Assembly (NCBI GenBank): GCA_017406005.1
Contig: JAFQZI010000035.1
Location: 1 to 35,822 of the forward strand
Direction of reading: 5' to 3'
Source: Oscillospiraceae bacterium
GTDB taxonomy: Bacteria; Bacillota; Clostridia; Oscillospirales; Oscillospiraceae
Length of the DNA stretch: 35,822 nt
Part shown: in pieces, positions 31,802 through 34,361 of the stretch
Position numbering within the stretch: position 1 is the stretch's first letter
Layout: the number at the start of each line of letters is the position of its first letter
Program-made: the position numbers and the translations under genes
Notes under the pieces: generated by a model
Databases searched by the model: none
What the model was told of the DNA's origin: nothing
What the model saw: the letters and a program-made list of their open reading frames with translations, nothing else

Positions 31802-31814
31802 ATGGTTAACAAGT

Positions 31815-31926
31815 GTGCAGGTCGGTGCAGGTCATATCTAAAAGTTTGTACGCGCGCGAGAAAAATGAAAAAACAGAAAAATACTTTCTATAGGAAATTT
31901 ATGATTTGACCTGCACGGATCTGCAC
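31815..31926. repeat. Module 1 inverted arms, 72-nt spacer
   Basis: Left arm 31815-31834 and right arm 31907-31926 are inverted repeats matching at 18 of 20 positions. The left arm is itself two direct half-sites (GTGCAGGTC twice). The 72-nt spacer includes GTTTGTACGCGCGCGAGAAAAA and an A/T-rich part ending in a CTATAGGAAATTTA-like sequence. The set looks like protein-binding sites of a phage regulator, replication origin or packaging site. Confidence 0.82.
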
Positions 31927-31971
31927 AAAATAGAAAAAATTTTTCTGAAGAAGACGAGGAGGATTATTACG

Positions 31972-32142
31972 ATGAGAAAAATCGAAAAAAATGATATGCA
32001 TAGACATTCATATCGCCGTGTGCTGAGAATGCATTATATTGAGGGTTTGACCTGGAAAGAAATCTCAATAAGGCTGAATGTGACGAGGAGCAATATCGGT
32101 TATCTGGAATCTCAGGATCTGCGCCAGTTGGCAAGCTTATAG
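31972..32142 (+). CDS. Small sigma-region-4-like HTH protein (phage type), module 1
   Basis: 56 residues: MRKIEKNDMHRHSYRRVLRM then HYIEGLTWKEISIRLNVTRSNIGYLESQDL. The LRxHYIEGLTWxEIxxRLNVTxxxxxxLxxxxL pattern is that of a sigma-70 region 4-like helix-turn-helix seen in small phage regulators. GGAGG lies nine bases before the ATG. It is shorter than usual for the phage family, as the N-terminal region is only about 18 residues. It sits between its inverted arms and a sigma-A promoter. It might bind the arms or the promoter; this is inference. Confidence 0.75.
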   Translation: MRKIEKNDMHRHSYRRVLRMHYIEGLTWKEISIRLNVTRSNIGYLESQDLRQLASL

Positions 32143-32194
32143 CAGCTCCAAAAATTTGTACATGCTTTTGTATCAATTGTACGCACTTTGGCAG

Positions 32195-32223
32195 TTGAGT
32201 CTATAGGGCAATTGGTGTATAAT
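32195..32223 (+). promoter_or_regulatory. Promoter of ~52-nt leader RNA, module 1
   Basis: TTGAGT (32195-32200), 17-base spacer, TATAAT (32218-32223). Transcription would start near 32230 and meet the terminator at 32246-32281. Confidence 0.8.
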
Positions 32224-32245
32224 GTAAACTGTCAGAAAGTATAAA

Positions 32246-32281
32246 ACGAGAGACAAGGCGCGAGGCCTGTCTCTCGTTTTT
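32246..32281 (+). terminator. Terminator immediately before a Shine-Dalgarno
   Basis: CGAGAGACA-AGGC/GGCC-TGTCTCTCG followed by TTTTT, then within four bases GGAGGTGAT. A promoter, a leader of about 50 bases, then this hairpin, then a strong ribosome binding site suggests that expression downstream depends on read-through. Confidence 0.88.
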
Positions 32282-32287
32282 GCGGAG

Positions 32288-32389
32288 GTGATTACAACGG
32301 AATTTCAGCCGGAGATCTCGGGCTGTGTCAGGGTGGCGGTTAAACCTACCGAGACAGCAACAGCACAGCCTGTTAAAATAATGCTGTGA
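32288..32389 (+). pseudogene. Short ORF relic downstream of the terminator
   Basis: GTG at 32288 or, more likely in the original, a codon now ACG at 32297 gives (V)ITTEFQPEISGCVRVAVKPT, ending TATAQPVKIML, about 30 residues. The GGAGGTGAT at 32284-32292 is well spaced only for the ACG position, so an ATG to ACG change may have removed the start. No family is recognised. Confidence 0.35.
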
Positions 32390-32497
32390 CAGTCTGTGAT
32401 GGTCATATCAGAAAGTTTGTACGCGCGGGAGAAAAATCAAAAAAGTAAAAATTTTCTCTATAGGGAATTTACGGAAATGACCGTCTCCGACCGTCAC
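32386..32497. repeat. Module 2 inverted arms, 72-nt spacer
   Basis: Left arm 32386-32405 and right arm 32478-32497 match at 16 of 20 positions as inverted repeats, with the same 72-nt spacing as module 1. The arm sequence differs from module 1 (GTGACAGTC, GTGATGGTC half-sites), but left and right arms changed together. The spacer has the same GTTTGTACGCGCG-GAGAAAAAT core. Confidence 0.8.
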
Positions 32498-32557
32498 ACA
32501 TATAATAATGGCTGATCTGCAGCGTGGATAACCCCGCGCTGTTGCCACGAGCTGAGG

Positions 32558-32683
32558 ATGCACTATATTAATGGCCTGACCTGGCAGGCAATTGCTGAAC
32601 GGTTGAACGTTACGGAAAGACATGCCTATTATTTCAGCAGAAAAGCGCATGACGAATTGCTGCATTATATGGGCGGAACTTAA
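32558..32683 (+). pseudogene. Sigma-region-4-like HTH, module 2, N-terminus lost
   Basis: From ATG 32558 (no usable ribosome binding site) 41 residues read MHYINGLTWQAIAERLNVTE, then RHAYYFSRKAHDELLHYMGG. The frame upstream (CCHEL before RMHY) is closed by TGA and has no start codon. The C-terminal half is fuller than in module 1 and has the normal length of the phage HTH family, so each copy keeps a different good part. Confidence 0.65.
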
Positions 32684-32724
32684 AGTTCAGGCTTTTATCA
32701 TGCAATTTTCAGGGTGTTATCAGG

Positions 32725-32753
32725 ATGACAGCAAGGTGCAATTTGAGTATACT
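32725..32753 (+). promoter_or_regulatory. Promoter of module 2 leader
   Basis: ATGACA (32725-32730), 17-base spacer, TATACT (32748-32753). The next 45 bases match module 1 closely, up to GAGAGACAGGGCG, where the right half of the terminator is missing and a terminase-like relic begins. Confidence 0.7.
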
Positions 32754-32794
32754 GTAAACTGTCAGAAAGTGTAAAACGAGAGACAGGGCGTCAA

Positions 32795-32967
32795 AACCTG
32801 CATATATCGTCTTCGGCATGATACAGAAAGCCGCCAAGGGGGATACCTCGGCGGCGAAGTTTATTAAGGAGATCAACAGGGAAGGGCCTTCCCGGATGAT
32901 ACCGGGATTTTCAATCTTCGTTCCCTCAGCGATGTGGTTCTCTGCCGTTTGGCTGGGTTCACACTGA
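32795..32967 (+). pseudogene. Phage terminase small-subunit-like remnant
   Basis: The frame KPAYIVFGMIQKAAKGDTSAA followed by KFIKEINREGPSRM has the A-K/T-GDT-x-AA-x-FI-x-E-x pattern found near the C-terminus of some small terminase subunits and related phage proteins. After that the frame carries no similarity I know and stops at 32967. There is no start. The fragment begins directly after the broken terminator half, so a deletion probably removed the 5' part of the packaging gene. Confidence 0.4.
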
Positions 32968-33015
32968 AGAAGCTGATGCAGAGCGAGATGTGAAGGCATC
33001 GCATGCTGGAATATA
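32950..33015 (+). repeat. Diverged 66-nt repeat, left copy
   Basis: About two-thirds identical to 34296-34361, with a nearly identical 25-base core (32970-32994, one mismatch with 34316-34340) containing ATGCAGAGCGAGATGTGAA. The two copies flank the CPBP/zinc-ribbon pair. The remaining stretch to 33106 holds no gene I can support. Confidence 0.65.
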
Positions 33016-34295: not shown

Positions 34296-34361
34296 TGGCA
34301 GGGTTTACCCTTGGAAAGCTCATGCAGAGCGAGATGTGAAAAGCCCGGCAAACCGGAATGT
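34296..34361 (+). repeat. Diverged 66-nt repeat, right copy
   Basis: Matches 32950-33015 in the same orientation. Its right end lies 12 bases from the stop of the amidinotransferase-like relic. The rest of 34213-34372 holds no gene I can support. Confidence 0.65.

What the first reader, a model, noticed from the sequence alone, without database searches (positions are those of the whole stretch)
31815..32790. Tandem duplication of a phage control module with co-varying binding arms
Modules 1 (31815-about 32281) and 2 (32386-about 32790) share, in order: paired 20-bp inverted arms, a GTACGCGCG core, an A/T-rich tract, an HTH gene, a sigma-A promoter and the same leader. In each module the two arms match each other better than they match the other module, so arm sequence evolved under pairing or dimer binding with new specificity. 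Spacing is 72 nt in both. I know of no named element with this set.
Basis: seen in the sequence. Interest (0 to 1): 0.75.

Follow-up and report, generated by a model that had tools for sequence, protein, structure and literature searches.

The report
Orphan phage replication origins in tandem
Two neighbouring stretches of this bacterial chromosome match the DNA-copying start sites that many phages carry just behind their helicase-primase gene, but here they stand without that gene; their changing letters look like an address code read by the phage enzyme.

Summary
The arms are real. Each module holds a ~114-bp element: two tandem ~10-bp boxes (GTGNNGGTC), a 74-nt AT-rich spacer, and the boxes inverted. 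A model built only from phage sequences finds both (E 9.5e-13 and 8.7e-11 in the window). The same element follows the primase-helicase gene (PHROG 1883) in 79 of 80 phage loci; the annotated Sfi21 origin has the same layout in other letters. The variable NN letters track one residue in the primase's C-terminal domain: GA goes with Asn in 16 of 17 primases, Asn with another type in 1 of 61, with about 12 joint switches on the tree. So the arms are most likely origin iterons read by the primase-helicase, not by the HTH protein or a terminase. Here they are orphans: in 102 genomes of the genus 26 of 49 elements have no such primase near; two of these were set aside, and five of the remaining 19 loci are tandem pairs. 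Module 2 is decayed. Whether orphans are decoys, minimal satellites or relics is open. The origin type is known; the letter code and orphan tandems are new as far as my searches show.

The parts
31814..31927 (+). Origin-type element 1: arms 31814-31833 and 31908-31927, each two tandem ~10-bp boxes (CA type, GTGCAGGTC), 74-nt AT-rich spacer
   Evidence: phage-only model R2 E 9.5e-13
31848..31856 (+). GTACGCGCG core, also seen in the origins of prophages G000:C143 and G079:C13, which have a primase next to them
31972..32142 (+). Short HTH gene (56 aa, sigma-70 region 4 type; DUF1492 match below cut-off), with AGGAGG ribosome site
   Evidence: Pfam PF08281 E 1.5e-7; phrog_36 E 1.7e-6
32195..32223 (+). 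Promoter-like TTGAGT-17-TATAAT
   Evidence: read from sequence
32224..32262 (+). Conserved leader GTAAACTGTCAGAAAGT...; near copies in G000:C25 and G082:C43/C30
32243..32280 (+). Leader hairpin followed by T run (terminator-like), then GGAGGTG
   Evidence: (I6), z -3.96
32385..32498 (+). Origin-type element 2: arms 32385-32404 and 32479-32498 (AC type, GTGACAGTC/GTGACGGTC), 74-nt spacer, core at 32419-32427
   Evidence: R2 E 8.7e-11 (minus strand) and 1.9e-9 (plus strand)
32516..32683 (+). C-terminal remnant of an HTH (DUF1492/phrog_36-like) gene without start
   Evidence: frames; (phrog_36 E 2.9e-7)
32725..32753 (+). Promoter-like ATGACA-17-TATACT of module 2
   Evidence: read from sequence
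32754..32790 (+). Leader copy of module 2; 3' half of the hairpin missing
32794..32993 (+). Remnant reading-frame pieces (two frames) of a phage-like protein
   Evidence: phrog_2412 E 0.0043 for the first piece only

Best explanation
Each inverted-arm element is a replication origin of the kind used by phage primase-helicases of the D5/SaPI-Rep type. Each arm is a pair of ~10-bp iterons, GTG-NN-GGTC. A C-terminal DNA-binding domain of the primase-helicase reads the iterons; a single residue in its predicted wing sets the NN letters. Two oppositely oriented groups of iterons load the helicase on either side of the AT-rich spacer, which melts. Because one protein reads all four boxes, the two arms keep matching each other while the letters drift between phages: that is the co-variation. 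In the window the two origins (element 1 of CA type, element 2 of AC type) are orphans: parts of compact phage-derived modules (origin, short HTH gene, late-type promoter, leader with terminator-like hairpin) without a primase. Shown: layout, homology to phage elements, place behind the primase in phages, residue-letter correlation, no PHROG 1883 match on the contig. Inferred: binding, melting, origin activity. Most likely the window pair is now a relic or rarely used site; if a phage of matching type infects, its primase should bind there.
For: Element downstream of the PHROG 1883 primase in 79 of 80 viral loci, one each, most within 90 bp of the stop; the 80th contig ends at the primase (42 of the 79 were in the training set of model R1). 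Outside the genus, class-wide, 6 of 6 elements lie behind such a primase. Arm co-variation: 18 of 20 pairs with both-side changes, score 0.375 against 0.136 shuffled. Pattern sample with NN left open, 20 distinct elements: outer NN match 38 of 40 bases, shuffled mean 18.8. Primase columns: the 8 best windows all lie in columns 681-745, top column 733 z 5.05, 0 of 2000 shuffles. Fresh primases under 90% identical: GA-Asn 9 of 10, Asn in 0 of 32 others; AC-Arg 9 of 11, Arg in 0 of 31 others. About 12 joint GA/Asn switches on a tree built without that domain. Own-genome primase C25 carries Asn (sequence, my reading) and its box is GTGGAGGAT. Sfi21 origin annotated after the primase, same layout with a 71-nt spacer. 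SaPI Rep and Cch2 use a C-terminal domain to bind repeats directly downstream of their gene (PMC7581432, passages).
Against: No binding or replication was tested. Model R1 does not find the Sfi21 origin, so likeness there is of layout only. In one search, 44 of 194 primase segments gave no element or no readable boxes by my script, and 8 were dropped because their outer boxes disagree; of these the own-genome primase of C143 (L144) has Met with AT/AC boxes, which the code does not predict. One CA primase (L019) carries Asn, one CA Ser, and one GA primase (L315) Thr. No structure could be predicted, so 'wing' rests on a Pox_D5 match below cut-off and recall of winged-helix folds. In G000:C25 the element lies before, not behind, the primase. 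Three full-length primases in G064 have no model hit beside them. The window elements have imperfect arms (18 and 16 of 20).
Confidence: 0.85

Rival explanations
1. Plain prophage relics (rival about why the orphans are there, not about what the elements are): everything but the origin and scraps was lost.
For: HTH and other reading-frame remnants in the window; G082:C43 and G015:C25 keep primase scraps; several orphans have poor arms, 11-15 of 20.
Against: 24 origins without primase, but only seven strong PHROG 1883 matches (over 370 bits, of 28) without an origin, of which three are full-length genes, one touches a contig start and three are truncated or diverged, although the gene is some 20 times longer than the element (my sorting). 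14 of 18 orphan loci searched have no ORF like those of the viral loci, while all 7 prophage control loci do; but L133, beside a primase scrap, also gave none, so that test misses scraps.
Confidence: 0.6
2. Natural origin decoys: the orphan origins are kept because they titrate or misdirect the primase-helicase of an infecting phage, like the Per effect of the cloned Sfi21 origin; tandem pairs cover two specificity classes.
For: 24 orphans in 19 loci of 10 genomes, 5 loci tandem, the five pairs in direct orientation by model R1. Four of five pairs join a CA/TA-type with an AC-type element (my reading). Ten flanking genes from seven sampled orphan loci: nine have a Pfam match, none phage-type. 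Per effect: PMC6356513, passages.
Against: No infection data; Per depends on copy number, here each element is single. Several orphans have poor arms. The phage-only model scores element 2 of the window slightly higher on the minus strand, so orientation of a near-palindrome is weak evidence. Outside the genus few orphan-like elements were seen.
Confidence: 0.2
3. Minimal satellites: compact modules of origin plus late promoter and packaging start that a helper phage replicates and packages.
For: The compact order origin, HTH, promoter, leader hairpin recurs in G082:C43 and, more loosely, G010:C239. In Sfi21 the order origin ... DUF1492 ... cos is annotated.
Against: No integrase or terminase family among seven ORFs around the modules; attachment repeats and cos were not searched for as such. 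Most orphans shown consist of the origin alone.
Confidence: 0.1
4. RNA hairpin or regulatory RNA instead of DNA origin.
For: Element 1 folds with z -6.35, which an inverted repeat gives anyway.
Against: No Rfam match at gathering score; departures from Watson-Crick pairing are mostly not G-U (122 against 38 of 935 cells); tandem boxes inside each arm; correlation with a protein residue.
Confidence: 0.04

Closest known systems
SaPI Rep / SCCmec Cch2 type origins (iterons directly downstream of a D5-type or related helicase)
   Same: Place behind the helicase gene, short repeats, recognition by the C-terminal domain (PMC7581432 passages); primase-helicase with D5_N domain
   Different: Here two tandem boxes per side, inverted around one spacer, with box letters that switch together with one residue; window copies lack the helicase
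Streptococcus thermophilus phage Sfi21 origin / Per element
   Same: Noncoding stretch after the primase annotated as origin and phage inhibitory; tandem boxes AGTTAC inverted around an AT-rich 71-nt spacer
   Different: Different letters, primases of the S. thermophilus type only about 22% alike over part of the protein, not found by model R1
Phage satellites (P4, PICI, PLE)
   Same: Phage-type origins in chromosomes
   Different: P4, SaPIs and PLE carry their own replication initiator genes (PMC7145576 passages); contig C7 has no PHROG 1883 match; other initiator families were not searched

Membership tests
Primase-helicase (SaPI-Rep/D5-type) iteron origin | Short repeated boxes around an AT-rich stretch | tested here: met
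Primase-helicase (SaPI-Rep/D5-type) iteron origin | Lies directly downstream of the helicase gene (family level) | tested here: met
   79 of 80 viral loci; 6 of 6 in class outside genus; 22 of 49 in the genus have it behind, 1 in front, 26 not
Primase-helicase (SaPI-Rep/D5-type) iteron origin | Same, for the window copies themselves | tested here: not met
   no PHROG 1883 match on contig C7
Primase-helicase (SaPI-Rep/D5-type) iteron origin | Bound by the C-terminal domain of the helicase | not testable with these tools
   indirect: residue-letter correlation
Primase-helicase (SaPI-Rep/D5-type) iteron origin | Replicates when the cognate helicase is present | not testable with these tools
   needs bench test
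Sfi21-type Per origin | Tandem boxes inverted around an AT-rich spacer | tested here: met
   layout only
Sfi21-type Per origin | Sequence homology to the Sfi21 origin | tested here: not met
   R1 gives only a weak hit elsewhere in the Sfi21 stretch, E 2.3
Sfi21-type Per origin | Inhibits phage when present in high copy | not testable with these tools
   reported for Sfi21 only (passages)
Phage satellite | Integrase, attachment sites, own regulatory genes | tested here: inconclusive
   no integrase family among seven neighbouring ORFs, no phage-like ORF by blastp in L147; attachment sites not searched as such

The most novel reading that the evidence does not exclude
Bacteria of this genus carry small arrays of bare phage replication origins, often two of different box type side by side, that act as decoys for the primase-helicases of incoming phages; and the phages escape by switching one DNA-reading residue together with all four boxes of their own origin, a switch seen about 12 times for Asn/GA alone.
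Probability: 0.2. Interest if true: 0.88.

Novelty: new variant of a known kind. Interest (0 to 1): 0.66.

Why it matters
It gives a readable code between a phage replication initiator and its origin: a testable one-residue, two-letter rule that switches repeatedly, so often that box type is almost free of the primase tree (39 changes against a mean of 43.5 for shuffled labels). It lets one predict which phage enzyme should act on an orphan origin. And it raises a question that can be tested: why genomes of one genus hold bare phage origins, in heterotypic pairs, between housekeeping genes.

Tried and rejected
Exact-pattern scans of viral contigs for the core and the leader found nothing; blastn against phages found nothing. 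Rfam at gathering score gave only a tRNA in the window and nothing in nine loci. The terminase idea: remnant pieces searched apart gave no Pfam family and only phrog_2412 of unknown function. The first NN count (42 entries) counted some elements in both orientations; I replaced it (38 elements, 20 distinct). In one search my HTH2 query was in a wrong frame and is worthless; the right frame was used. G008:C29 was set aside as a terminator look-alike (not found by R2) and G028:C90 because it touches a contig end. G111:C35 counts as orphan although an N-terminal-only PHROG 1883 match lies about 3.5 kb away. In the tree I left out three of the 42 fresh primases (L143, L153, L169) because only part of the protein is held. 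The flank search for G010:C267 (72 of 102 genomes with some match) shows that matches on the ATP-synthase side never reach into the element outside G010, but not how the element came in. The class-wide search scored only 9 candidates per genome at a stricter limit, so orphans elsewhere may be missed; three orphan-like elements in records of unknown genus (L152, L154, L162) were seen.

Full report
Observation. The two modules hold inverted 20-nt arms at 31814-31833/31908-31927 and 32385-32404/32479-32498, 18 and 16 of 20 complementary, with 74 nt between the arms in both. Each arm is itself two tandem boxes of about 10 bp: GTGCAGGTC twice in the left arm of element 1; GTGACAGTC or GTGACGGTC outside in element 2. 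Module 1 has a 56-aa sigma-70-region-4 HTH gene; module 2 only a remnant without start. The leader hairpin is strong in module 1 and lost in module 2.

What it is. The same layout was found before a lone primase gene in the same genome (contig C25), where the shared promoter and leader also recur. That primase belongs to PHROG 1883, with Pfam D5_N, DUF5906 and a C-terminal Pox_D5 match below cut-off. Of 435 viral relatives the 80 best were kept. A script and then a covariance model found the arm element downstream of the primase: 79 of 80 loci have exactly one model hit, most within 90 bp of the stop and all within about 400 bp, the 80th contig ending at the primase. The model was trained on 47 elements, 42 of them from these loci. 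A second model from 35 phage elements only finds the two window elements at E 9.5e-13 and 8.7e-11, so the match does not rest on their being in the training set.

Co-variation. On the 47-element alignment the 20 arm pairs form a standard pair in 87.0% of cells against 72.4% for shuffled letters; 18 of 20 pairs change on both sides; sliding the partner destroys the signal. The phage-only alignment gives 87.7% against 74.5%, and 14 of 20 pairs. As a test free of selection on the variable letters I scanned genomes and viral contigs with the boxes fixed and NN left open: 38 elements, 20 distinct; outer NN agree in 38 of 40 bases (shuffled mean 18.8), inner 29 of 40 (16.4), middle 35 of 40 (23.9), 0 of 5000 shuffles reaching any of these. 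Departures from Watson-Crick pairing are mostly not G-U (122 against 38 of 935 cells), which speaks for DNA sites, not an RNA stem.

Who reads the arms. 70 primases with arms were aligned; 57 had agreeing outer boxes, 39 of these remain after removing those 95% alike; the 13 others were dropped. Mismatch between primases was compared for pairs of same and different box type. The eight best windows of the whole protein all fall in columns 681-745, the C-terminal domain; the best column is 733 (z 5.05, 0 of 2000 label shuffles): GA with Asn 7 of 7, AC with Ser/Ala/Arg/Gly 6 of 6, CA and TA with Ile/Val/Met/Phe 21 of 23 (one CA each with Asn and Ser). I then fetched new primases, having noted one forecast beforehand (G119, box GTGGAGGTC, Asn expected). 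Of 194 primase segments, many on contigs fetched before, 149 had readable boxes; 42 distinct ones are under 90% identical to the training set and have agreeing boxes (8 with disagreeing boxes dropped): GA-Asn 9 of 10 (one Thr), Asn in none of the other 32; AC-Arg 9 of 11 (two Ser), Arg in none of the other 31; CA with Ile/Val/Met/Tyr 13 of 13. G119 has Asn. Among the eight dropped, L144 of the own genome has Met with AT/AC boxes, against the code. On a tree of 78 primases (39 of the first set, 39 of the 42 fresh ones) built without the C-terminal domain, GA changes 12 times, Asn 12 times, the pair jointly 13 times; Asn occurs in 16 of 17 GA and 1 of 61 others. So the correlation is not shared descent. 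The column lies in a stretch like RKKTKxGNxIxGLRL that I take, from recall of winged-helix folds, for the wing; the structure tool was off.

Known relatives. The Sfi21 record marks a 302-bp noncoding stretch after the primase as origin and phage inhibitory sequence. Its sequence has CTTTAGTTACTTAGTTAC and its exact inverse around a 71-nt AT-rich spacer: the window layout in other letters; model R1 does not find it. PMC6356513 (passages) reports that this region gives phage-encoded resistance. PMC7581432 (passages) states that SaPI Rep uses its C-terminal domain on an origin of iterons directly downstream of its gene and shows binding of the Cch2 C-terminal domain to the direct repeats downstream of its own. 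PMC7145576 (passages) describes satellite origins and initiators. In print: my searches listed no paper on this element family, its letter code or orphan origins in chromosomes; I saw only listings and the passages named, and most subscription papers are not held.

Orphans. In 102 genomes of the genus, model R1 (E up to 0.01) gives 49 places in 20 genomes. 23 lie within about 800 bp of a PHROG 1883 match, two of them next to scraps only (G082:C43, G015:C25) and one, G000:C25, before the gene. 26 do not; leaving out a look-alike (G008) and a contig-end case (G028), 24 remain, in 19 loci of 10 genomes; the phage-only model recovers the same 24 among its 46 places. Five loci are tandem pairs, in direct orientation by model R1: G000:C7 (the window), G010:C261, G024:C20, G107:C120, G111:C35; in four the two elements differ in box type. 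18 of the 19 loci were searched for ORFs like those of the 80 viral loci: 14 had none, against 7 of 7 prophage loci with many; but L133, beside a primase scrap, also had none. Ten flanking genes from seven orphan loci: nine have Pfam matches, all of host type (ATP synthase, phosphorylase, UvrA-like and others), one has none. Class-wide, outside the genus, six of six elements had the primase next to them. Conversely, of 28 strong PHROG 1883 genes (over 370 bits) in the genus, 21 have an element and seven have not: three full-length in G064, one at a contig start, three truncated or diverged (my sorting). Since the gene is some 20 times longer than the element, 24 bare origins are hard to square with random decay; but detection limits and contig breaks may bias this.

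The window. Elements 1 and 2 carry the GTACGCGCG core also seen in the origins of prophages G000:C143 and G079:C13; G079:C13 has nearly the arms of element 2 and Arg in its primase, as the code predicts. The compact order origin, HTH, promoter with GTAAACTGTCAGAAAGT-like start, hairpin recurs in G082:C43 and, more loosely, in G010:C239. Seven ORFs around the modules gave no integrase or terminase family; one, the neighbouring ATPase gene, matched ATPase-type PHROGs mostly of unknown function, six gave none. I read the pair as two related phage-derived modules, the second decayed. Most likely they are relics or rarely used sites that a matching phage enzyme would still bind; decoy and satellite readings remain open.

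Verdict. Origin type known, code and orphan tandems new as far as searched.

Noticed in passing
window 32972-32993 and 34318-34339: The string GCTSATGCAGAGCGAGATGTGA occurs twice, in both cases ending a reading frame ...LAGFT..KLMQSEM; looks like two remnants of one phage-like protein end.
   Followed up: partly
L006 9161-12293 (G000:C25): A lone intact-looking primase gene with origin element in front, a run of short repeats like ATCCGACCTG, the shared leader and a hairpin, between host-type genes; no integrase noticed, none searched for.
   Followed up: partly
L123, L124, L140, L141, L142: Several orphan elements lie next to the string AGACATATGGCTAA (or a near copy or its inverse); in L123, L124 and L142 a small gene like MPISNARRKANRKWDEANRDRYW (ribbon-helix-helix-like by eye) is beside it; in L123 a near copy of the string returns on the other side.
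   Followed up: no
L191 6928-7135 (Streptococcus phage Javan8): Two element-like matches in tandem after the primase-helicase gene, one strong (52 bits), one weak (24.5 bits).
   Followed up: no
L179 4498-4603: Viral contig with an element between an amidase-like gene and a recombinase-like gene (by eye), no PHROG 1883-type primase found by tblastn in the 6-kb piece.
   Followed up: no
L128 6050-7606 (G107:C120): Two very similar elements with the same upstream flank about 1.4 kb apart: a local duplication.
   Followed up: no
G064 contigs C47, C67, C84: Three full-length PHROG 1883 primases without a model hit beside them; their origins may have letters outside the model.
   Followed up: no
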